Below, piece after piece: positions 11,255 through 32,174 of a stretch of 32,183 nt of DNA. Origin of the DNA: Clostridiaceae bacterium (GTDB lineage Bacteria > Bacillota > Clostridia > Clostridiales > Clostridiaceae). The notes under the pieces are model-generated. The model was not told where the DNA came from and did no database searches. It was given only the letters and a program-made list of their open reading frames with translations. The stretch lies in the NCBI GenBank assembly GCA_014380625.1, contig JACMJL010000019.1, positions 1-32,183 on the forward strand, in the 5' to 3' direction. Every line of letters starts with the position of its first letter. Position 1 is the first letter of the stretch. A program made the position numbers and the translations under genes.

Positions 11255-12394
11255 TTATTTTAATACGCTAGCTGCGATAACCATTTTCTGAACCTGTGAA
11301 GTTCCTTCATAAATCTCTGTTATTTTAGCATCTCTCATCATTCTCTCTACTGGATAATCTTTAGTATATCCATAACCACCAAATAATTGGACAGCTTTAG
11401 TTGTAACTTCCATAGCAACTTCAGATGCAAAGAGCTTGGCTCTTGCAGCTTCTAATGAATATGGAAGGTTATGATCTTTATTATACGCTGCTAAATAAAC
11501 TAAATATCTAGCCGCTTCTATTTTAACATCCATATCTGCAACCATCCATTGTAAACCCTGGAAAGCACTTATAGATCTACCGAACTGTTTTCTATCCTTC
11601 ATGTAATTTACAGCCTCTTCTAAGGCTCCTTCAGCTAAACCTAAAGCCTGAGCTGCTATACCAATTCTTCCTCCATCAAGAGTTTTCATTGCTATACCAA
11701 ACCCTCTTCCTTCTTGTCCAATTAAATTGGCTTTAGGAACTTTACAATCTTGAAAAATAAGTTCTGTTGTTGATGAAGCTCTAATTCCTAATTTATCTTC
11801 AACCTTACCAATAGAGAAACCTTCAAAGCCCTTTTCAAGTATGAAAGCAGATATACCTTTAGTTCCCTTGCTTCTATCAGTCATGGCGAATACTACAAAT
11901 ACATCTGCAACTCCACCATTAGTTATAAATATTTTTGTTCCATTAAGTATATAGTTTTCTCCATCAAGAATAGCAACAGATTGTTGTCCTGCTGCATCAG
12001 TTCCTGCATTTGGTTCTGTTAAACCAAAAGCACCAAGTTTTTCTCCCTTTGCAAGTGGAATTACATATTTCTGTTTTTGTTCCTCTGTGCCAAATTGATG
12101 AATTAGACAAGCACAAAGTGAAGTATGTGCTGAAAGTATAACTCCAGTAGTACCTCAAACCTTTGATAATTCTTCAACTGCAAGAACTTAAGATAAATTG
12201 TCCCCACCAGCTCCACCATAGGAAACTGGTATTGGTATTCCCATCATGCCTATTTTAGCCATTTTCTCAACAGTTTCCATTGGAAATCTTTCTGTTTGAT
12301 CTATTTCAGCAGCTAATGGTTTAACTTCATTTAGCGCAAATTCTCTAACCATCTCTTTCACAAGCTGTTGTTCTTTTGACAAAATAAAATCCAT
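11255..12394 (-). pseudogene. bcd: Butyryl-CoA dehydrogenase, interrupted by two in-frame stop codons
   Basis: The frame, read through, encodes a complete 379-residue acyl-CoA dehydrogenase. It has LTEPNAGTD, KIFITNGGVADVFVVFAMTD, TLDGGRIGIAAQALG, AVQLFGGYGYTKDYPVERMMRD and the C-terminal EIYEGTSQ with the catalytic glutamate. But codon 69 is TAA (12188-12190, normally Tyr in SYxxAVEELSKV) and codon 80 is TGA (12155-12157, normally Cys in KVCGTTG). No frameshift or other damage is seen; both changes fit single base substitutions to A on the coding strand. The next ATG is at 11884, so re-initiation would lack the N-terminal domain. As written no functional Bcd can be made. The neighbours look intact, so this is either very recent inactivation or sequence error. 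Confidence 0.93.
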
Positions 12395-12410
12395 TTATTT
12401 TACCTCCCCA

Positions 12411-13193
12411 TTATCTGTTTTTAAAGTTTTTTTCTCTCTTTTCAACAAAGGCAGTCATGCCTTCCTTTTGATCTTCTGTAGAGAAGCATTCTCCGAATAC
12501 TTCTGATTCGTATGAAAGAGCGGTATCTATATCTGTTTGCATTCCTTTATTAATTGCTGCTTTACAAAGACTTACAGCAATTGGTGCCTGAGCTGCAATT
12601 ATGTTTGCAAGTGCTTTAGCCTCTGTTAATAAGGTTTCAGGGGCTACTACTTTATTTACAAGCCCAATTCTAAATGCCTCATCGGCTCCAATAATTTTTC
12701 CAGTGTAAATTAATTCTTTAGCCATACCAAGACCTACAATTCTAGCCAGTCTTTGGGTTCCTCCAAAACCTGGAGTTATACCAAGTCCTACTTCTGGTTG
12801 ACCAACCTTGGTTTTTGTGGAGGCGATTCTTATATCACATGCCATAGCAAGTTCACAACCCCCACCTAAAGTAAACCCATTAAGTGCTGCTATAACAGGT
12901 TTTTCAAGGTTTTCTAGTCTCCTAAATACTTGATTTCCAAGTATTCCAAATTTTCTTCCTTGTACAGTAGACATTTCCTTCATCTCAGATATATCAGCTC
13001 CTGCTACAAATGCCTTCTCTCCTGCACCTGTTAATACTACTGCTAAAATTTCCTCATCCTTTTCAACTTCATCAATAACATAATTAATTTCTTTTAATGT
13101 TTCTGAATTTAATGCATTTAAAGCCTTAGGTCTGTTGATTGTAACGATAGCAATTTTTCCTTCTTTTTCAAGAATAATATTAGTAAGTTCCAT
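12411..13193 (-). CDS. crt: 3-hydroxybutyryl-CoA dehydratase (crotonase)
   Basis: Crt dehydrates 3-hydroxybutyryl-CoA to crotonyl-CoA. The 260-residue protein is a typical enoyl-CoA hydratase: the oxyanion-hole segment VAGADISEM, the motif ALNGFTLGGGCELAMACDIRIAS with one catalytic glutamate, and GQPEVGLGITPGFGGTQRL with the second. I place the start at the ATG 13191-13193, because AAAGGAGG lies seven bases upstream; the TTG just before it is unlikely. It is the first gene of the operon, behind a promoter and Rex operator, and 16 bp before bcd. Confidence 0.97.
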   Translation of the reverse strand: MELTNIILEKEGKIAIVTINRPKALNALNSETLKEINYVIDEVEKDEEILAVVLTGAGEKAFVAGADISEMKEMSTVQGRKFGILGNQVFRRLENLEKPVIAALNGFTLGGGCELAMACDIRIASTKTKVGQPEVGLGITPGFGGTQRLARIVGLGMAKELIYTGKIIGADEAFRIGLVNKVVAPETLLTEAKALANIIAAQAPIAVSLCKAAINKGMQTDIDTALSYESEVFGECFSTEDQKEGMTAFVEKREKNFKNR

Positions 13194-23431: not shown

Positions 23432-23458
23432 ACAATTTTAAAGAAATATCATATTATA
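23432..23458 (+). promoter_or_regulatory. Mother-cell sigma (SigK/SigE-like) promoter candidate of sodC
   Basis: AC at 23432-23433 is followed after 16 bp by CATATTATA (23450-23458), which fits the SigK pattern AC-N16/17-CATAnnnTA; the -10 also fits SigE. A SigA reading (TATAAT at 23455-23460) lacks any acceptable -35. Transcription would start about 25 bp before the start codon, in front of the GGAGG site at 23480-23484. AT-rich sequence makes chance matches possible. Confidence 0.5.
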
Positions 23459-23489: not shown

Positions 23490-23815
23490 ATGAATTATCC
23501 ATATGATTATGAAAATTATATTAATGAAAGAGAAGTACGTGCTAGACGTCAAGTTAGAGCGATTATGAAGGGTGGTCCTTTAGCACCAAATCTAAAAGGT
23601 TTTGTTGTATTTACTGATGTTCCAGGTGGAACCGAAGTATATGCACAGATTACTGGACTTCCAAGCTTTAGACCCGCTTCAGACGGAAAACCTCAAATAG
23701 GACCTTTCGGTTTTCACATTCATCAAAATGGAAACTGTAGCGTAGGTAATCCAGCTAGCCCTTTCATGGCAGCAGGCGAACATTGGAATCCAACAAATCA
23801 GCCACATGGCAACCA
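23490..23815 (+). CDS. sodC: Cu/Zn superoxide dismutase SodC, 5' part (gene interrupted by element)
   Basis: SodC converts superoxide to oxygen and peroxide. This exon-like part encodes residues 1-108 and two bases of codon 109 of a 170-residue protein: copper ligands His76 and His78 in FGFHIHQNG, bridging His97 in GEHWNP, Cys83, and zinc ligand His106. The reading frame runs on into the element for 57 unrelated codons and stops at 23982-23984. The missing 3' part (30962-31167) holds Asp112, His145, Arg162 and Cys165, so this half alone cannot be active. The ATG at 23490 is chosen over the TTG at 23463 because GGAGG lies just before it. There is no signal peptide. The N-terminus MNYPYDYENY resembles spore-associated clostridial SodC-like proteins as I remember them. 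Confidence 0.92.
23797..23815. repeat. attL core (19-bp direct repeat)
   Basis: This copy of ATCAGCCACATGGCAACCA is identical to that at 30962-30980. It contains GCCA-CA-TGGC (23801-23810), a dyad around a non-palindromic CA, the arrangement expected of a large-serine-recombinase crossover site. It encodes the zinc-ligand loop of SodC. Confidence 0.92.
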
Positions 23816-23818
23816 CCT

Positions 23819-25567
23819 CTATAGGGGATTATTTTCAATCTGTGAATTGATTGGTAATTCCCTTTCATTATCCCACTTCCTCATGTCTCTAACTGCCATA
23901 TCTTCAAACATTTTACCTTCTTCAATATCCATAAACATATGTTCCACTGAAACTAGTTTATATTCATTTCGTCTTGAGTCATAATAGCATAATTCTCCTG
24001 ACTCTTCTATTTTCAGCTTTACTTCCTCCTTTGTTCTATTCTCTATAATTGGACTTCCTTCCAAACTATATGTTCCAATATTTACTGCACTAAATATCTT
24101 TTTTAAATCTGCATTTGTCAAATTACTAGTATCTACATTATCCAAGTATTGAATATAGTTTTTAAATTTTCTCTTAACCTCAATTAAATCGTTATCTACA
24201 TTGGTTAATTTATGAAATTCATTTTCGTAAATACTTAGTTCTTTCCTTATATTAGTATTATATTCTTCTAGCTCCTCATCAGTAATTTTTCCTAACCCAT
24301 TTAATCTAAGGTTATTAGTAAAAATCTGTTTTGATTCTTCTATCTTTTGATTTACTTCCTTTAATCTACTTTCTGTATCAAGTGAAAAATAAATATCTAT
24401 ATAGTCCTTTAATGAATTTTCTAAAGTCTCCTTATGTTCTCTAAATCCTTCTATTCTATCCTTACAAAATTGTATCAACGTTTCCTCTGGTATTGAATTT
24501 CTATATTCACACCTTTTAGTACCATACATATCATTATTTTGACATATCCATTCATATCCAATATAAACAACCTCTTGTTTAACCTTTGTTTGCTTCTTTT
24601 TTCTTCTCATAATACCGTTACAATTTCCACATTTACAAACCGTGGATAATAAATTTTTGTCTGAATGTCTATGTTTCTCCTTATATTCTCCTGTCCTTCT
24701 TTTATCAATATCCTGTGCTTGTTCCCATAAGTCATCTGAAATAATCTTCAATGATTCTATTGTATTTATGATCCAATCATGTTGGGGAATATCTTTAATT
24801 AAACTAATATTAACGTCATGATTTTCGCTTTTATGATTGGTCTGAATACCTTTATAAATTGGATTGGTTAAAATATGTTTTATATGTTGTTGCCACCACA
24901 TTCCGCCTTTTTTAGTTGGAACTTCTGTGTCATTCAACCATCTTAATATTTTATTATGCCCCCAACCTTCAACGATATAATGATTATATACTTGCTTTAT
25001 TATCTCCGCTTCCGTTTCATTTACCTGTAAATATCCATCAACTCTATCATATCCATAAGGGCAATTACTTGTCCATTTACCTTGTTTTTGACCTTTTCTT
25101 ATTCCAAATTTAACCGCTACACTTTTGGCTCTACTCTCTTCCTGTGCCATTGATAAAAACATATTTATTATTGCTTCATGTTCATCATAATTTAAATTTC
25201 CATCTTCAAAAACAACCTTTACTCCATAACCCTTAAGCAATTTTAAGTCATTTGCTCCATCTCCAACGTTACGAGCAAACCTTGCTATATTCTTGCAAAT
25301 TACAATGTCAAATTCTCTGTTGGCTGCACACTTCATCATATATTCAAATGCTTTTCTATTCTTTTTTTTAGTTCCTGTGATTCCTTCATCTGCAAAAATA
25401 CCCTCTAAAATTTGTTCCCCTTTTTCTTTACTATAAAGCATACCAACTTTTACAGTGGAATACTCTTTAGTTTTAAATAGTTCTGTGTAATGTTTCATCT
25501 GATTGCTTAATGAATTTTTCTGGTCTAAATCATTGGTACTTACTCTACAATATGCAACTGAACGCAT
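23819..25567 (-). CDS. Large serine recombinase (site-specific integrase/excisionase)
   Basis: This enzyme is expected to integrate and excise the element. The 582-residue protein has the resolvase-type catalytic domain (YCRVSTNDLD with nucleophile Ser10; IARFARN with Arg96 and Arg99; FLSMAQEESRAKSV). It then has a recombinase domain (about 165-290, NCPYGYDRVDG, LTNPIYKG) and a zinc ribbon (Cys 311, 313, 316, 342, 353). A long coiled-coil segment and a C-terminal tail complete it. I prefer the ATG at 25567, with GGTGG just upstream, over the in-frame GTG at 25579. Its stop codon lies 3 bp from the attL core. A SigA promoter is upstream. All catalytic motifs are intact, so the element may be active. 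No separate directionality factor is recognised. Confidence 0.94.
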   Translation of the reverse strand: MRSVAYCRVSTNDLDQKNSLSNQMKHYTELFKTKEYSTVKVGMLYSKEKGEQILEGIFADEGITGTKKKNRKAFEYMMKCAANREFDIVICKNIARFARNVGDGANDLKLLKGYGVKVVFEDGNLNYDEHEAIINMFLSMAQEESRAKSVAVKFGIRKGQKQGKWTSNCPYGYDRVDGYLQVNETEAEIIKQVYNHYIVEGWGHNKILRWLNDTEVPTKKGGMWWQQHIKHILTNPIYKGIQTNHKSENHDVNISLIKDIPQHDWIINTIESLKIISDDLWEQAQDIDKRRTGEYKEKHRHSDKNLLSTVCKCGNCNGIMRRKKKQTKVKQEVVYIGYEWICQNNDMYGTKRCEYRNSIPEETLIQFCKDRIEGFREHKETLENSLKDYIDIYFSLDTESRLKEVNQKIEESKQIFTNNLRLNGLGKITDEELEEYNTNIRKELSIYENEFHKLTNVDNDLIEVKRKFKNYIQYLDNVDTSNLTNADLKKIFSAVNIGTYSLEGSPIIENRTKEEVKLKIEESGELCYYDSRRNEYKLVSVEHMFMDIEEGKMFEDMAVRDMRKWDNERELPINSQIENNPL

Positions 25568-25597
25568 AAATTCCACCACCTTATTGTTTATACCTTA

Positions 25598-25626
25598 ATA
25601 GTACAATAGGGTGTTAATTAAATCAA
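25598..25626 (-). promoter_or_regulatory. SigA-like promoter of the recombinase gene
   Basis: On the minus strand TTGATT (25621-25626) and TACTAT (25598-25603) are 17 bp apart, about 31 bp before the ATG at 25567. Confidence 0.6.
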
Positions 25627-25859
25627 TAAAATTACCTATACTTTCATATACCTTATGGGAAGATATCATTGTCCTAGCTCTATTAGATAGCCTTATTGAT
25701 GCTTTAAATCACGGTAATATTAATCGGTGAATATGTTGTGAATAATAGGTTTGCATTTATGACAAACTGCGAACGAATCGGATAAGAATGTAAATTGCAT
25801 CTTTGAGTTTAAACAGTTTACTTATTGCTATTAGCCGTTAAATAATCTTAATAAACTTC
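25627..25859. other. Non-coding stretch, nothing recognised
   Basis: The region between the recombinase promoter and the coiled-coil gene has no frame longer than about 30 codons with a ribosome site. It holds only short imperfect repeats. A recombination enhancer or small RNA cannot be excluded. Confidence 0.4.
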
Positions 25860-25885
25860 AAAAAAATAAGGCTTATAACAAGCCC
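25859..25885 (-). terminator. Rho-independent terminator of the coiled-coil gene
   Basis: Read leftward, GGCTT (25880-25884) pairs with AAGCC (25870-25874) over a 5-base loop, followed by TTATTTTTTT. It lies 12 bp after the stop codon at 25897. Confidence 0.75.
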
Positions 25886-25896
25886 TATGAATATAT

Positions 25897-26178
25897 TTAT
25901 TTAACTGCTTTTAATCTTGCTATATCTGCATAATTACTACTAGTCACAATCTCAACTGTAGATATATCTTTTCTAAGTGCTTCAACATCACCCATGATAT
26001 GATTTATATTGCTAGCCATGTTGTCATGTTCACTTTTATTAACTTCTGCTTTATGTTCCAATGCTCTTAAAATTACATGGTCTTCTTGCTGTTGCGTTTC
26101 TATCCCGTCAATCTTTGCTTCTATCCCGTCAATCTTTGTTTCCAATCGCTTTAATATTTCTAGTATTTCTTTATCCAT
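25897..26178 (-). CDS. Small coiled-coil protein, function unknown
   Basis: The 93-residue product is hydrophilic and almost wholly helical. It contains the tandem seven-residue repeat KIDGIEA/KIDGIET at about 16-29, in register with a coiled coil, and another heptad-like segment up to DVEALRKDISTVE. There are no cysteines, membrane segments or catalytic motifs. Similar short coiled-coil proteins are common next to clostridial phage and mobile genes, but I cannot give a function. The ATG at 26176-26178 has a perfect GAGGTG site and the gene ends in its own terminator, so it is likely real. It lies between the toxin/immunity cargo and the recombinase and might be a recombinase accessory protein; that is inference from position only. 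Confidence 0.75.
   Translation of the reverse strand: MDKEILEILKRLETKIDGIEAKIDGIETQQQEDHVILRALEHKAEVNKSEHDNMASNINHIMGDVEALRKDISTVEIVTSSNYADIARLKAVK
26100..26141. repeat. 21-bp tandem duplication inside the coiled-coil gene
   Basis: Two adjacent 21-bp units (26100-26120 and 26121-26141) differ at one base and add exactly one heptad of the coiled coil, keeping the frame. Confidence 0.85.
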
Positions 26179-26402
26179 TTAATTTCACCTCTTTATATTA
26201 TTTGATTATATCATATTATTGAAGCATTTTTAAAGGTATTTTTTTATATTTATTTTGAGGTCAATCTCCAATAGTGGGTATACTCCAAATAAGGGAATTT
26301 GTAAAATTAATTAATAAATACCGCCCACTCACTCCTATTTAAAATATTTCAAATAAACAGAAACAAACATTCTTGTTTTCAATAAAATAATTCTTTACAA
26401 AT
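26179..26402. other. Non-coding stretch with one long-range inverted repeat
   Basis: The AT-rich region holds AGTGGG (26273-26278) and CCCACT (26324-26329), which could pair over a ~45-base loop. Otherwise nothing recognisable is present. It presumably carries the promoter of the coiled-coil gene. Confidence 0.4.
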
Positions 26403-26430
26403 AAAAAAGCAAGGTTTTAATCTTGCTTTA
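26403..26430 (-). terminator. Rho-independent terminator
   Basis: Read leftward, AAAGCAAG (26422-26429) pairs with CTTGCTTT (26406-26413) over an 8-base loop, with TTTTTT continuing the stem. It ends the leftward transcript of the toxin/immunity cargo and the small ORFs at 26471-26795. Confidence 0.8.
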
Positions 26431-26470
26431 TGGCTTCAAACTATTATTTACTTACTTTCATTATAAATAT

Positions 26471-26671
26471 TTATGTATTTATATAGTGTACTTGTTGTAC
26501 TTTTTCCTTAATCCAGTTTTGTTTAACCCTTATATCTTTAGACCTATGAATTTCAATAATATCATCTTTGATAATTATTCTAAGGTTTCCTTTATGAAAA
26601 TTTTTATCTTTTAATACTATATCAATTCTCTTCCCCTTATTCACACCTTGAATAACTATGTAATTGTTCAT
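26471..26671 (-). CDS. Small hypothetical protein, doubtful start
   Basis: The 66-codon frame starts MNNYIVIQGVNKGKRIDIV and is basic. Alternating hydrophobic residues suggest a small beta-rich domain. No ribosome site precedes its ATG at 26671, and the first 12 codons overlap the end of a 52-codon frame (26637-26795) in another phase. The two may be one older gene split by a frameshift. It is followed by a good terminator. No family recognised. Confidence 0.4.
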   Translation of the reverse strand: MNNYIVIQGVNKGKRIDIVLKDKNFHKGNLRIIIKDDIIEIHRSKDIRVKQNWIKEKVQQVHYINT

Positions 26672-26795
26672 ATATATGTTTATATTTATACATATCTGAA
26701 TCTATCATAAATTCATTACACTTATGGTAATATGGTACGCTACCCTTAAAATATCTTATATATCGCCTAATAAGGTTAAATAAATTTTCTTTCAT
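26637..26795 (-). CDS. Possible 52-residue ORF, maybe the 5' part of a frameshifted gene
   Basis: From the ATG at 26793-26795 the frame reads MKENLFNLIRRYIRYFKGSV and onward, a helical, basic and tyrosine-rich product of 52 residues, stopping at 26637. It overlaps the 66-codon frame by 35 bases in a different phase. The only purine-rich stretch (AAGG) touches the ATG, too close to be a good ribosome site. It lies 38 bp after the Imm22 gene on the same strand. Confidence 0.3.
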   Translation of the reverse strand: MKENLFNLIRRYIRYFKGSVPYYHKCNEFMIDSDMYKYKHIYEQLHSYSRCE

Positions 26796-26833
26796 CCTTG
26801 GTTATATTACTATTTTTTAAAACTGCAGTCTTT

Positions 26834-27223
26834 TTATTTGTTGTAGTTTACACATCCAATAAAATCAATTTCATTCCCATTATATTCGACATGTTTACAT
26901 ATTCCATCATACTCAAAATCATAAAGGAATATTATACTGTTATATTCTTTTTCAAGTTTATCATTATAATTCTCTTTAAACTTAGGTATTATCTCATAAT
27001 CATTTGAAAATCCTTCAAGTAGCTCTTGAAAATCGCTTAATCCTTCTTCAATCCAATCTACTTCTGAAAAATTTATATCATAATATTGAATTTTAAAATT
27101 TTCTTTAAATTTTGATGAAATTGAGTCTACATCATCTGTATATTTAATTTCCATGAATTTTTTAAAATCCTTTTCATTCGTAAAGTTTCCAAGCCATAAT
27201 GACACATTGTTTTCTTTTTTCAT
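26834..27223 (-). CDS. Imm22-family immunity protein (DUF4284-like)
   Basis: Immunity proteins bind and block a matching polymorphic toxin. The 129-residue acidic protein starts MKKENNVSLWLGNFTNEKDFKKF; the VS-[IL]-WLGNF opening followed by F-K-x-F and later IQYYDINFSEVDWIEEG is the pattern I know from Imm22. The ATG at 27221-27223 has GGAG nine bases upstream. Its start lies inside the 3' end of a toxin C-terminal frame (27174-27398), as expected of an orphan toxin-tip/immunity cassette. No export signal is present, so it acts in the cytoplasm. Assignment is by recalled motif only. Confidence 0.7.
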   Translation of the reverse strand: MKKENNVSLWLGNFTNEKDFKKFMEIKYTDDVDSISSKFKENFKIQYYDINFSEVDWIEEGLSDFQELLEGFSNDYEIIPKFKENYNDKLEKEYNSIIFLYDFEYDGICKHVEYNGNEIDFIGCVNYNK

Positions 27224-27398
27224 TTTCTTTACTCCTATCTATTATCTTAGCATCTTTCCATATTTCAAGTAACTCATCAATATTCAATGAATTGAAAAAT
27301 TTATTAAACTGTCCATTTTTAACTGAAGGAATATCTTTAGATACTAGCCCATAAGGATTACTTACCACCTGGTATGATAACCTTTTAAGAATTAATCA
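27174..27398 (-). pseudogene. Orphan polymorphic-toxin C-terminal stub
   Basis: The open frame from 27398 to the stop at 27174 has no proper start and begins right after a stop codon. It contains YQVVSNPYGL, VKNGQFNKFFNSLNIDEL and LEIWKDAKIID. The NGQFNKFFNSLxxDELxxxWKD pattern is what I recall from linker regions just before HNH-type toxin tips of clostridial polymorphic toxins. After WKDAKI the frame turns to an unrelated Lys-rich run and overlaps the Imm22 gene. So the toxin tip is truncated or frameshifted while its immunity gene survives. Such displaced stubs usually sit downstream of a full toxin gene, here the one at 29271-30650 before the IS110 element came between them. Confidence 0.55.
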
Positions 27399-27506
27399 GT
27401 AGTTCCTACCATAAGTTCCGAATTATTTATCATTTCTATAATTCAAAAGCTTATTTCAACTATTGTTTAATTAGCACACATTTGAGACAATATTCTCGTA
27501 AATAGA

Positions 27507-27688
27507 TAGTGGATTCCGTCCGCCCCCTTGAGGTTTTATCCTCGTCACTAAGACAGTTACCTCTTCTTTATGAGATGTTGCGTATTAGCTGGATGTTGGT
27601 TGTAATTTCAACTCTTCGTATATCTAACCAGGTTGTAACTTGTAAAGAAAAGAGGATTCTATCTAAATTAACAAAAGAGGTGTTATTT
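27507..27688 (+). ncRNA. Candidate IS110 bridge RNA region
   Basis: IS110-group elements encode a structured guide (bridge) RNA in the leader before the transposase. This leader is richer in G and C than its surroundings. TAGTG (27507-27511) pairs with CACTA (27546-27550), and GAGG (27530-27533) with CCTC (27540-27543), leaving a large asymmetric internal loop rich in C. Further on, CTGGAT and ATCTAACCAG, with GTTG...CAAC inside, suggest a second stem-loop. Two stems with open loops fit target- and donor-binding loops. Location is supported by the family; the exact RNA limits are inferred. Confidence 0.5.
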
Positions 27689-28861
27689 ATGTATATCGTA
27701 GGTATTGATATTGGTAAAAACAATCATGAAGCCACTATTATTGATGAAAAAGGTATTATAATAGGCAAATCTATTAAATTTACTAATTCCCATGATGGTG
27801 CTACTAAACTCCTTAATCATATCATTAAGAACATTGGTGATTCACCAGTCTCATTTGGGCTTGAGGCTACAGGGCACTACTGGCTCTCTCTTTATTCATT
27901 TTTATTGGACAAGGGATATACCGTTAATGTTATTAATCCTATACAATCAGATTGCTTTAGAAGTCTCTATATTAGACAAACCAAGAATGACACTATAGAC
28001 TCTTTTATCATCGCTGAAGTTATTCGCTTTGGCAAATACACTAATACTAAGCTTTCCAATGAAAGAACACTTGCATTAAGACAATTATGCCGATATAGAA
28101 ATTATTTATCCTGTGAAGTCGGTGAACTTAAATGTAAAATCATAACAGTATTAGATCAGGTCTTCCCTGAATATGAAAAGCTTTTTTCCGATACTTGAGG
28201 AACTACTTCTAAAAAACTTTTGGAAGAATACCAAACCCCGGAAGAAATTTTAGCTATAGATACCTCTAAATTAGCAGCTATGCTAAAAAAGTTAAGTCGT
28301 GGTCAACTTGGCTATTCCAAGGCCGAAAAGATTCAAGAAGCTGCAAGGAATACCTTTGGTATTAAAATAGCCCAAGACGCCTTTAAATTTCAATTAAAGC
28401 AACTGATTGATCAAGTATTATTCTTAGAAAATCAAATAAAAAATTTAGATGTTGAAATCCAAACTTATTACACTCAATTTGATTGTCACTTAACATCTAT
28501 ACCTGGAATTGGTCCTGTTACTGCAGCCGCTATTCTAAGTGAGGTTGGTGATATTAAGAGATTTAAAGATGCTGCTAGCCTTGTGGCTTACGCCGGGATA
28601 GACCCAACGGTGAAACAGTCAGGTCAGTTCTTATCTAACAATAATAAGATGTCTAAAAGAGGTTCTCCTTATTTGAGAAGAGCTCTATTTCTTGGTGCCT
28701 CAAATGCTATTTTATACGATCCAGTCCTTACTGAATATTATAATAAAAAACGTGCCCAAGGAAAACATCATCTTACAGCAGTAGGTGCTGTCGCACGTAA
28801 ACTAACCTATATCGTCTTTGCTATTATGAGGGATAATAAGGATTATGTAGCTATGACATAA
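27689..28861 (+). pseudogene. IS110-family transposase with one in-frame stop codon
   Basis: Read through, the frame encodes 390 residues. It has an N-terminal RuvC-like DEDD domain (VGIDIGKNNHEATI, FGLEATGHYW, RQTKNDTIDSFIIAEV), a helical linker, and a C-terminal transposase domain (SIPGIGPVTAAAILSEVGD, AYAGIDPTVKQSG, SKRGSPYLRRALFLGAS with the probable catalytic serine). A TGA at 28196-28198 interrupts the frame after residue 169; the phase is unchanged on both sides. The N-terminal part alone lacks the serine domain, so the element is probably inactive unless the stop is a sequence error. The ATG at 27689 has AGAGG upstream; the frame open further upstream to 27509 runs over the leader RNA and is not coding. 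Confidence 0.88.
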
Positions 28862-28894
28862 TCCTTAAATTAATTTCATTGACCAATATTGAAT

Positions 28895-28919
28895 CCGTTA
28901 AAAAATCAAATTCTAACGG
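28895..28919. repeat. Stem-loop at the right end of the IS110 element
   Basis: CCGTTA (28895-28900) and TAACGG (28914-28919) form a perfect 6-bp stem with a 13-base loop, 33 bp after the transposase stop. It could be a terminator without a T-run or part of the element's right end. Confidence 0.5.
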
Positions 28920-28934
28920 TCTATTTCTTATGCT

Positions 28935-29237
28935 TTAAGAATAAAAATAGTTTTCACATTCTTGAAACTTTATTTCAATATCACCTTTGTCCGTTTTATA
29001 CCATTTAGCAAATACATAATACTTACTATATAATTCATATTGATCGTTCTCAATTGCTTCTAGAAGGCCCTCTTTATATTCTTCATCAATTAGCCAACCA
29101 CTTAAATCTTCAACATACATTTTAGTTTTTTCATCTTCAAAATCATTGCCTTCACCTGAATCAATCACAAAGGTTTTTCCCTGAAGTCTAGCCTTTTGTA
29201 AAACAAATTCAATATATGTATCTATCCCATCATTCAT
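28935..29237 (-). CDS. Putative immunity protein for the adjacent toxin
   Basis: The 100-residue protein is strongly acidic (many Asp and Glu, as in GEGNDFEDEKTK and LIDEEYKEGLLEAIENDQYE), has no membrane segment and no recognised family signature. It starts 33 bp after the stop of the WXG100 toxin gene on the same strand with AGGTGTG before the ATG, the usual position of the cognate immunity gene. Small acidic immunity proteins often neutralise basic nuclease toxin tips. The function is inferred from position and charge. Confidence 0.65.
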   Translation of the reverse strand: MNDGIDTYIEFVLQKARLQGKTFVIDSGEGNDFEDEKTKMYVEDLSGWLIDEEYKEGLLEAIENDQYELYSKYYVFAKWYKTDKGDIEIKFQECENYFYS

Positions 29238-29270
29238 ATATAATCACACCTTTCAAAATTATAATTGAAT

Positions 29271-30650
29271 CTATTTTTTCCACAAAATCGTGCCTTCAAT
29301 AAATCTTTTGTTACTAATAGCTCCATCCTTAAGTATTGTTACAAAGTTTCCGTTTAATTCTGTAACTACTACATCGTTTCCCTTTTTATAGAACAAGGCC
29401 GGGCCTTCACCTTTTAACCCATTGGCTAATTTATCCCCAATAGCTCTCCATGAATTCGTCCTTATTTCTTCTGCATTTATATGAATATCTTCAGTATAAT
29501 TTTTAATCCATTCTCTTGCTTTTATATCACTTGGGTCCATTTTAAAATCTTCGCGAAGGTGCTGCGTTAATTTTTGACCTGCTTTTTTATCAGAAATTTT
29601 TAGTTCTAAGTCACTTAGGTTAAATGAATTACCTATTGACTTCTCATAGCTGGTCTCTATTACCGGTTTAACCTTTGGTATAGACTCTAATACTGGATTA
29701 ATTTCTGCTTTACTTGCCGCCTTATTAGCTCCACCGCCTGCTCCCATACCAAATACTACATCTTCAGATACAAATTCTCCTGTTTTTAAACTTTTATAAG
29801 CTCTTACCCCATTTACTGTAACTGCAAAAAATTGTCCTCCAAGTTCTCCACTCATTAAATCTGCAGTTAACTTCCTATCTTCATAACTCATTTCTGGTGG
29901 CATTTGTTTCATATAATTAAATTTAAACAAATTAACATAAGTTGATAAACCAAAAATAGCTGAATATGTTAAATATGAAAAATAATCTCCATTATTCGCA
30001 TATTGGTTTTGAATTTCCTTTCTCAATTCTTCGTTGGTATGGATATAATAATTTGTTACTTCGCTATCCTCTACTTTAATTGTCTCACTCTCAGTATAAG
30101 TTGCATCATTCCAGATTTTTAATACTGGGTCAAGTTCACGGTCCCTTACCTTTTGTATATTTTCACTCTCCAATTTATTTTTAACACTCTGTCGTGCAAC
30201 ATTTGTACCTCTACTAGGACTAAAATGAGACTTAACTTGCTTACTTGTTGTAGACGACAACCGTGGACCATATAAATTAAGTGTTGACTTAGTTATCCCT
30301 TCATTTGTTTGTGTCAAAATCATTGCCTCTGCTAGTTTAAGGTCACCCATTCCAAGGGGATTTGTACTTTGAGCTGCAAGAGCCTTATCTGCTTCCTCCA
30401 TTTTATCAGCAGTCATAAAAAGATTAATATATAAGCCTTCCAATATTCTAACGAAGGAGTCCATTGAAGGACGAATTCTACTATACTCATAAATAAAATT
30501 AGAAGAAGCGGCTCCTTCCCATAAAAGATAAAGACCATTTATTGTTCTATCTAGTTCCTCCGTAATGGATTCAATATTATTACGGTACTTCTTGATAGTA
30601 TTTGCACTGCTTCGTATTTCATTAAAATCATACTTAATAGTATTTCCTAT
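29271..30650 (-). CDS. WXG100-domain polymorphic toxin, start codon apparently degraded
   Basis: An ATG at 30464 opens a 397-residue frame, but the same frame is open upstream to 30704 and encodes an obvious WXG100 domain: DFNEIRSSANTIKKY, ELDRTINGLYLLWEGAASS with W-E-G at 44-46 if counted from 30650. At 30648-30650 there is ATA exactly eight bases after a good ribosome site (AAGAAGG), where an ATG would be ideal; ATG, GTG and TTG are all absent upstream of 30464. The middle (about 100-320) is an unassigned linker. The tip (about 350-459) has a basic helical part (LTQHLREDFKMDPSD) and the strands FYKKGNDVVVTELNGNFVTIL, faintly like colicin D-type tRNA nucleases. Proteins of this build leave the cell by the type VII/Esx system. 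As written, only a form lacking the export domain could be made. Confidence 0.7.
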   Translation of the reverse strand: MGNTIKYDFNEIRSSANTIKKYRNNIESITEELDRTINGLYLLWEGAASSNFIYEYSRIRPSMDSFVRILEGLYINLFMTADKMEEADKALAAQSTNPLGMGDLKLAEAMILTQTNEGITKSTLNLYGPRLSSTTSKQVKSHFSPSRGTNVARQSVKNKLESENIQKVRDRELDPVLKIWNDATYTESETIKVEDSEVTNYYIHTNEELRKEIQNQYANNGDYFSYLTYSAIFGLSTYVNLFKFNYMKQMPPEMSYEDRKLTADLMSGELGGQFFAVTVNGVRAYKSLKTGEFVSEDVVFGMGAGGGANKAASKAEINPVLESIPKVKPVIETSYEKSIGNSFNLSDLELKISDKKAGQKLTQHLREDFKMDPSDIKAREWIKNYTEDIHINAEEIRTNSWRAIGDKLANGLKGEGPALFYKKGNDVVVTELNGNFVTILKDGAISNKRFIEGTILWKK

Positions 30651-30800
30651 AAATAAAACCTTCTTTGCTAATTTAATATTAACATAAAATCTTATAACCA
30701 GTTCTCAATTTTTTAATCTAAATTCATAACTTGTCCTTTTCTCCCTCCTAATCGTGGCAATACTTTAACCTGGCTCTACGCTGTAATATAATATTTAAAT

Positions 30801-30812
30801 ATTATATCATAA
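30801..30812 (-). promoter_or_regulatory. Extended -10 promoter candidate of the toxin operon
   Basis: On the minus strand TGATATAAT (30801-30809) is a perfect TGn-TATAAT element, 150 bp upstream of the toxin ribosome site; no good -35 is seen. Between them lies an AGGAGGG site before an ATG (30725-30727) that codes for only four residues, possibly the remnant of a lost small gene. Confidence 0.5.
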
Positions 30813-30961
30813 ATCCAATCAAATATATTACATTTTAGGGAATCTATGTTTAACTAACACTTATCATGTATCCTTTTTTATTAATGTATGTGTCAATCTA
30901 GCCCATTAAACCCACTGATACAGTGCTTCTATTACTAAAGTTCATAACACCCTTTTATATT

Positions 30962-30980
30962 ATCAGCCACATGGCAACCA
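30962..30980. repeat. attR core (19-bp direct repeat)
   Basis: This copy of ATCAGCCACATGGCAACCA matches attL exactly. The dyad GCCA-CA-TGGC is at 30966-30975. To its right sodC coding sequence resumes in frame. Confidence 0.92.
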
Positions 30981-31167
30981 TGCAGGAGATTTTCCAGTAC
31001 TTTTTTCTAATGGTGGAAGGGCTAAAATGACCTTTTTTACTAATAAATTTAAAATATCTCAAATTATTGGTAAGTCAGTTATGATTCACCAAGGTCCTGA
31101 TGATTACAAAACACAACCTGCGGGAAACTCTGGAATGAGGTTGGCTTGCGGAGTGATTATTGCTTAA
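30962..31167 (+). CDS. sodC: Cu/Zn superoxide dismutase SodC, 3' part (gene interrupted by element)
   Basis: This stretch has no start codon or ribosome site of its own. In the frame of the 5' part it encodes the repeat-overlapping QPHGNH and then HAGDFPVLFSNGG, SVMIHQGPDDYKTQPAGNSG and MRLACGVIIA before the stop at 31165-31167. These supply zinc ligands His109 and Asp112, copper ligand His145, active-site Arg162 and Cys165 (partner of Cys83) of the rejoined 170-residue protein. All catalytic residues are intact and there is no frame damage, so the gene seems functional after excision rather than decayed. Confidence 0.92.
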
Positions 31168-31700: not shown

Positions 31701-32174
31701 TTATTCAAATCCAATAACTATCCATTCATCTACTACATCCCAAAAGTCAATATTATATCTAGGTTGGTTATTTGAGAACCATAAAGTAGCATTATTTTTA
31801 TTGCAATTATTATAATCAATAGCAATATACCCACCCATACCGCTTTTGAAAAAGCCAAAAATTGTTTTTAAGTCAATTTTAATTGGTTCTTCTAACTCTT
31901 CAATAATACCCCATTCATCATCATCAAAAAACGTTATAGATTGAATAGGCACTAATCCCATTGACTGACTTGCATAAAAATACAATCCATTATGAGCATT
32001 TTCATAGAATTTTCTAATTGAATTGGGAAATTTACTCCAAACTATCTCTAATTTAGGATTATTAAATTTCTCTTCAGCATCTCCCCCTTCATAATATTCT
32101 ATCTCACCATCTGATGTTTTTATGCAATATAAAATAGAATATTTTCCGTCATATTCTATTAAATCAATAAATTA
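31701..32174 (-). pseudogene. SUKH/SMI1-KNR4-like immunity protein, N-terminus broken or missing
   Basis: The frame is open from just after a TAA (32172-32174) to the stop at 31701 and encodes about 157 residues: DLIEYDGKYSILYCIKTSDG, EYYEGGDAEEKFNNPKLEIV, WSKFPNSIRKFYENAHNGL, and the acidic end FWDVVDEWIVIGFE. The W-x-x-hydrophobic-P-x-S-[IL]-x-x-FY-x-x-x-NG stretch resembles SUKH-superfamily immunity proteins. No ATG, GTG or TTG occurs before the TTG at 31985, which would remove about 60 well-formed residues. A second in-frame stop (TGA) sits at the window edge. The start is thus lost, shifted in frame or altered. It lies outside the sodC element, so it belongs to the host neighbourhood. 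Confidence 0.5.

What the first reader, a model, noticed from the sequence alone, without database searches (positions are those of the whole stretch)
23490..31167. sodC split by a precise 7,165-bp element whose excision restores a perfect gene
The 5' part of sodC stops at codon 109 and the 3' part resumes 7.2 kb away. Identical 19-bp repeats mark the junctions, and fusion gives a 170-residue Cu/Zn SOD with every metal ligand (His76, 78, 97, 106, 109, Asp112, His145), Arg162 and the Cys83/Cys165 pair. The separated 3' part shows no decay, which argues for recent insertion or regular excision. Interrupted genes rejoined by a serine recombinase are known for sigK (skin) and spsM; I do not know of a described sodC case.
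Basis: partly seen in the sequence, partly recalled or inferred. Interest (0 to 1): 0.93.

Follow-up and report, generated by a model that had tools for sequence, protein, structure and literature searches.

The report
Mobile element splitting a spore-phase sodC
A small mobile DNA element has cut a superoxide-dismutase gene in two inside its active-site code; because that gene looks like one used by the doomed mother cell during spore making, the element may be cut out there to restore the gene, as known elements do in other spore genes, but excision itself has not been seen.

Summary
A Cu/Zn superoxide dismutase gene in a Clostridiaceae draft genome with spore genes is split by 7,165 bp at identical 19-bp repeats that lie in the same codon phase, on the code for the active-site motif QPHGNH. 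The insert carries an open 586-aa large serine recombinase whose gene ends 3 bp from the left repeat, so this is site-specific integration. The exact 19-mer occurs in one uninterrupted relative. New here: sodC genes of this kind share a mother-cell (sigma-K-type) promoter (68 of 108 distinct upstream regions against 22 of 971 control genes), and the split copy has one 32 nt before its start codon. That puts sodC in the class of gene where skin, SP-beta/spsM, gin, vfbin and vrin sit. Programmed excision is plausible (about even odds) but unproven: I recognised no directionality factor, saw no sigma-K-type box on the recombinase strand, and found no second occupied or empty strain. Plain inactivation is the main rival, since 162 of 206 family genomes show no sodC. 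Cargo: a WXG100 toxin-like ORF, an Imm22-like protein and a broken IS110. Best called a new member of the gene-intervening elements, pending excision.

The parts
23432..23457 (+). Mother-cell (sigma-K-type) promoter match AC-N16-CATATTAT before sodC, 32 nt from the start codon
   Evidence: consensus recalled, not from a call
23490..23816 (+). sodC 5' part, 109 codons of homology; frame continues to a stop at 23984
23797..23815 (+). 19-bp repeat, left junction (attL core)
23819..25579 (-). Large serine recombinase, 586 aa, Resolvase + Recombinase + zinc ribbon, no stop inside
25897..26178 (-). 93-aa coiled-coil-like ORF with relatives in 64 of 200 family genomes; role unknown
26834..27223 (-). 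Imm22/DUF4284-like protein
   Evidence: PF14112, 87.3 bits
27509..28861 (+). IS110-family transposase with one in-frame stop (two ORFs, same frame)
28935..29237 (-). 100-aa ORF directly downstream of the WXG100 ORF; possible immunity protein (inference from position only)
29271..30704 (-). WXG100 toxin-like ORF (stop to stop; ATG form 29271-30464)
   Evidence: PF06013, 51 bits
30962..30980 (+). 19-bp repeat, right junction (attR core)
30964..31167 (+). sodC 3' part, 67 codons and stop

Best explanation
A 7.2-kb integrative element without recognised phage structural genes, run by its own large serine recombinase, integrated into a 19-bp attB-like site made by the QPHGNH code of a mother-cell-expressed sodC. 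In vegetative cells sodC is expected to be silent, so the insertion costs little. During sporulation the recombinase, probably with a directionality factor not yet identified, most likely excises the element in the terminal mother cell and restores sodC there, while the forespore keeps the element. Shown: the insertion, the repeats, the open recombinase, the promoter class by sequence. Inferred: vegetative silence, excision, its timing, the directionality factor, and SodC acting in the spore envelope.
For: Identical 19-bp repeats in phase at both breakpoints. Open 586-aa recombinase whose gene ends 3 bp from the left repeat. Of 119 distinct PHGNHAGD sites 2 match the 19-mer fully, the uninterrupted sodC of L045 and the window's own right junction, and 31 match 17 or 18 of 19. 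Mother-cell promoter box: 96 of 145 sodC upstream regions against 3.7 expected in shuffles, duplicates and the window included; 77 of 119 distinct regions, window left out, against 33 of 1190 control ORFs; with one start-choice rule for both, 68 of 108 against 22 of 971; named and unnamed loci agree, 43 of 72 and 44 of 71. The window's copy has the box. Host has Spo0A and SpoIVA. Both halves free of stops and of all but one change at invariant columns. By the passages I read, skin, SP-beta in spsM, vfbin, vrin and gin split mother-cell genes, and yin splits a sporulation gene.
Against: No excision product and no empty strain seen. No directionality factor recognised; the 93-aa ORF has relatives in 64 of 200 family genomes, and the four wider regions I fetched around such relatives carry no match to the window recombinase. 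No sigma-K-type match on the recombinase strand; seven loose sigma-E-like matches there, none just upstream of the recombinase or the 93-aa ORF. No sodC match in 162 of 206 family genomes, and it is decayed or truncated in a few others, so losing it is tolerated. Only one occupied genome found. sigma-K and sigma-E boxes share CATA (recalled), so the class is 'mother cell', not surely sigma-K. Not every Bacillota sodC is of this kind: YojM of B. subtilis is reported inactive and a Parageobacillus one is a predicted lipoprotein (PMC10432803, PMC13068155, passages).
Confidence: 0.5

Rival explanations
1. The element is an ordinary recombinase-borne integrative element that inactivated a dispensable gene; excision is rare or random and serves only the element's transfer.
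For: No sodC match in 162 of 206 family genomes; large serine recombinases are known to target and disrupt coding sequences (PMC10083194, passages); no sporulation control recognised in the element.
Against: The target gene carries a mother-cell-type promoter shared by many relatives, the class of gene in which programmed excision is known; recombinase open; halves undamaged.
Confidence: 0.42
2. The element is now trapped: the directionality factor was lost or the inside rearranged, and sodC is a recent dead gene.
For: IS110 inside with an in-frame stop shows decay of one element part; no directionality factor recognised.
Against: Recombinase of 586 aa has no stop; sodC halves intact. Known directionality factors of such elements are all different from one another (PMC10747680, passage), so failure to recognise one means little.
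Confidence: 0.07
3. Assembly artefact joining unrelated DNA.
For: Draft genome of 338 contigs, 81% complete.
Against: Both junctions lie inside one contig, at one shared 19-mer, with a recombinase at the edge; the 19-mer is too short to mislead normal assembly (judgement). G+C 30.2% against 32.4% upstream and 29.5% downstream.
Confidence: 0.01

Closest known systems
gin element in gerE, Bacillus cereus ATCC 10987 (PMC5595907, passages read)
   Same: Element without phage genes, serine recombinase, short shared sequence at the junctions, inside a mother-cell sporulation gene.
   Different: gin is 28.6 kb with three recombinases and a shown directionality factor GirX; here 7.2 kb, one recombinase, none recognised; excision shown only for gin.
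skin in sigK, B. subtilis and C. difficile (PMC5025042, passages)
   Same: Large serine recombinase with the same three Pfam domains, gene next to the target-gene junction; mother-cell gene split.
   Different: Prophage-like; target is a sigma factor; C. difficile has the directionality factor CD1234 under sigma-E and SpoIIID.
SP-beta in spsM, B. subtilis 168 (PMC4191935, passages)
   Same: Sigma-K-dependent spore-envelope gene split; excision restores it in the mother cell.
   Different: An active phage much larger than 7 kb (size recalled) using SprA and SprB; here no convincing phage structural gene.
yin in yabG, Clostridium botulinum V73 (PMC10747680, passages)
   Same: Clostridial sporulation gene split by a recombinase-borne element reported from one strain.
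   Different: Prophage-like, with a predicted directionality factor and shown excision.
fdxN element recombinase XisF (NCBIfam NF041201)
   Same: Best NCBIfam match of the recombinase, 110.6 bits.
   Different: Far below its cut-off of 375 bits; not a member.

Membership tests
Sporulation gene-intervening elements (skin, spsM/SP-beta, gin, vfbin, vrin, yin) | Insertion splits a coding sequence with short identical repeats at the junctions | tested here: met
Sporulation gene-intervening elements (skin, spsM/SP-beta, gin, vfbin, vrin, yin) | Element encodes a serine recombinase | tested here: met
Sporulation gene-intervening elements (skin, spsM/SP-beta, gin, vfbin, vrin, yin) | Target is a mother-cell sporulation gene | tested here: met
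   By promoter class only: 68 of 108 sodC upstreams against 22 of 971 controls; window copy; no expression data
Sporulation gene-intervening elements (skin, spsM/SP-beta, gin, vfbin, vrin, yin) | Recombination directionality factor, in some cases under mother-cell control | tested here: inconclusive
   None recognised; known ones differ from each other
Sporulation gene-intervening elements (skin, spsM/SP-beta, gin, vfbin, vrin, yin) | Excision during sporulation restores the gene | not testable with these tools
   needs reads or PCR
Large serine recombinases | Resolvase, Recombinase and zinc-ribbon domains | tested here: met
   PF00239, PF07508, PF13408, each over its cut-off
Prophage | Structural or packaging genes | tested here: not met
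   Eight element proteins given to PHROGs (the IS110 ORFs were not given): integrase and DNA-invertase families for the recombinase; the 93-aa coil has weak matches to head or lysis families (E 0.0036 and worse), and to Pfam XhlA at 21.4 bits, below its cut-off of 34.7; I read these as coiled-coil noise
XisF fdxN recombinase | NCBIfam equivalog cut-off 375 bits | tested here: not met
   110.6 bits

The most novel reading that the evidence does not exclude
Cu/Zn superoxide dismutase of this kind is a mother-cell, spore-envelope gene in much of Bacillota, and in this lineage its activity is gated by programmed DNA excision of a 7-kb element that carries a WXG100 toxin-like gene and immunity-like cargo: an enzyme gene, not a regulator, put under irreversible mother-cell rearrangement at its own active-site code.
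Probability: 0.42. Interest if true: 0.7.

Novelty: new member of a known kind. Interest (0 to 1): 0.52.

Why it matters
If excision is shown, it adds a metal-enzyme gene to the short list of split sporulation genes and suggests why these elements settle there: the gene is needed, if at all, only in a cell that dies. The wider result, a shared mother-cell-type promoter before sodC, gives a testable answer to why strict anaerobes keep a Cu/Zn superoxide dismutase: for the spore.

Tried and rejected
Named genome scan with the recombinase: 52 pattern stretches, none a relative; IMG/VR with the recombinase: no stretch; IMG/VR with the sodC alignment: 47 stretches, no relative; IMG/VR with a 3'-half pattern: 0. 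Two distant recombinase hits that I followed (Paenibacillus cellulosilyticus, 31.5% identity; a 6.4-kb 'phage' record, 30.8%) do not lie in sodC by the ORF lists I read; the other records were not followed.

Partial sodC genes looked at as possible further cases: G212 and G473 run off a contig end. G168's second copy and G254 are decayed by frameshift or stop, with no match to the window recombinase in the stretches fetched; G168 also has a full-length copy. G246 has only a 3' half that begins at the same codon; a CATAATAT box stands directly before it, with gerQ-like and hydrolase-like ORFs upstream (names by eye), which points to a deletion, and the 19 kb fetched hold no match to the window recombinase. 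That it breaks at the same codon is unexplained and could be an old element site. G695 and G633 break elsewhere. G754's match starts 87 bases from one end of its contig, and the weak G275 and G328 matches are below the cut-off; these three were not fetched.

Dyad symmetry of the att arms: attP is highest at the central CA of the 19-mer (12 of 24), and attB is jointly highest there (9 of 24, tied with one other centre). But 12 of 24 or more occurs in 2.1% of random pairs and twelve centres were tried, so this is only suggestive. An 84% inverted match between the recombinase upstream region and the right end (I20) was dropped as one of 72 pairs. The 93-aa ORF as directionality factor was not supported.

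Full report
What is there. The window is contig C216 of a 4.37-Mb, 338-contig draft genome, 81% complete. No same-genus genome was among the 58 relatives returned. The family contains the genome behind locus L032, whose sodC is identical to that of Clostridium hydrogenum, so it is Clostridiaceae. It has Spo0A (five matches, four over the whole profile) and SpoIVA, so it should form spores (inference).

The split. Two pieces match Cu/Zn superoxide dismutase, 23490-23816 and 30964-31167. Aligned apart with 20 of the 44 relatives caught, they meet at QPHGNH. Identical 19-bp repeats at 23797-23815 and 30962-30980 lie in the same codon phase; the lengths give 170 codons and a stop. The 3' half keeps 31 of 31 invariant columns and the 5' half 25 of 26; intact relatives, left out one by one, differ at 0 to 3 of 52-55.

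The element. A 586-aa large serine recombinase with all three domains ends 3 bp from the left repeat. In the family search 165 of 206 genomes, the own one included, have some match, as expected for so common a protein family, but the listed rows other than the window's own are only 27-37% identical. The rest is an Imm22-like protein, a WXG100 toxin-like ORF with a small ORF behind it, an IS110 transposase broken by one in-frame stop, a 93-aa coiled-coil-like ORF and short ORFs. PADLOC gave no match for the four proteins given. PHROGs gave no convincing structural or packaging gene for the eight given; the 93-aa ORF has weak, below-cut-off matches to phage-type coils. By content I call the element non-phage.

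The target. Of 119 distinct PHGNHAGD sites, 2 match the 19-mer fully (the uninterrupted sodC of L045 and the window's own right junction), 8 match 18 and 23 match 17. The element uses a site that protein function keeps much the same, which could give it many hosts (inference).

The new point: sodC looks like a mother-cell gene. In 145 upstream regions, window and duplicates included, 96 hold AC-N16/17-CATAnnnT, against 3.7 expected in dinucleotide shuffles. After removing the window and identical regions it is 77 of 119 against 33 of 1190 other ORFs from the 80 named loci. With one start-codon rule for both and the box 15-60 nt from the start it is 68 of 108 against 22 of 971, Fisher p about 2e-59. 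Split by source, 43 of 72 named and 44 of 71 unnamed distinct regions have it (the two sets overlap). Left out: 7 of the 80 named loci, where no usable region was caught, regions with under 150 bases upstream, and starts with a low Shine-Dalgarno score. The sequences are related, so the p-value overstates independence, but they span Clostridia and Bacilli (names). The window copy has the box at 23432-23457, 32 nt before ATG. The sigma-K consensus is recalled; sigma-E shares the CATA box, so 'mother cell' is the safe reading.

Literature. Mn superoxide dismutase at the spore surface of C. difficile, and a role of SodA in coat cross-linking in B. subtilis, are in print (PMC3789822 and PMC3533761, passages). 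I saw nothing on sodC as a mother-cell gene in the listings or in the passages read of six papers from them (PMC3789822, PMC5025042, PMC3533761, PMC10432803, PMC1976550, PMC13068155). Two of these show other kinds of SodC in Bacilli: B. subtilis YojM, reported inactive, and a predicted Parageobacillus lipoprotein; so the claim is for sodC like those collected here, not for every one.

Is it unique? Sod_Cu searches in 58 relatives, 206 family genomes, 225 order, 391 class and 398 phylum genomes, overlapping sets, the last two sampled, show no second case that I could recognise; most partial genes were looked at (see Tried and rejected). sodC is present in 44 of 206 family genomes, the own one included.

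Mechanism. Integration by the recombinase at the sodC site is as good as shown. Excision in the mother cell is the best-supported guess because the target class is right and the recombinase and both gene halves are open; it lacks a directionality factor and any excision data. The closest proven case is gin in gerE (PMC5595907), also without phage genes. The broken IS110 shows that not everything in the element is kept in order. I put programmed excision at about one half and plain inactivation at about two fifths.

Noticed in passing
window 11255-12414, - strand: The acyl-CoA dehydrogenase gene of the butyrate operon seems broken: only a 209-aa C-terminal ORF and a 68-aa ORF, though DNA similarity covers the whole stretch. 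Frameshift or sequencing error.
   Followed up: partly
G000: C234, C207, C229, C2, C297 (L212-L216): Five Spo0A C-terminal matches in one genome, four over the whole profile; an unusual number, or a mixed assembly.
   Followed up: no
sodC upstream regions, loci: Shared mother-cell-type promoter before sodC across many Bacillota; many Clostridium copies also show TGTAAC at the -35 (read by eye), which resembles the SpoIIID motif quoted in PMC5025042.
   Followed up: partly
L185:8400-9250: Orphan sodC 3' half beginning at the same codon, directly after a CATAATAT box and a gerQ-like ORF; no 5' half was found in that genome.
   Followed up: partly
window 29271-30704 and 28935-29237, - strand: WXG100 toxin-like ORF with a small ORF behind it, cargo of the element.
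   Followed up: partly
window 31701-31985, - strand: 94-aa ORF with a weak SMI1/KNR4 match (E 0.037, below cut-off), possibly another immunity-type gene beside sodC.
   Followed up: no
L191 (MT838016.1): A 6.4-kb record named as phage holds ORFs that look like bacterial chromosome (polyphosphate kinase 2-like and YqfC/YqfD/YlbJ-like sporulation ORFs, by eye) beside a large serine recombinase.
   Followed up: no
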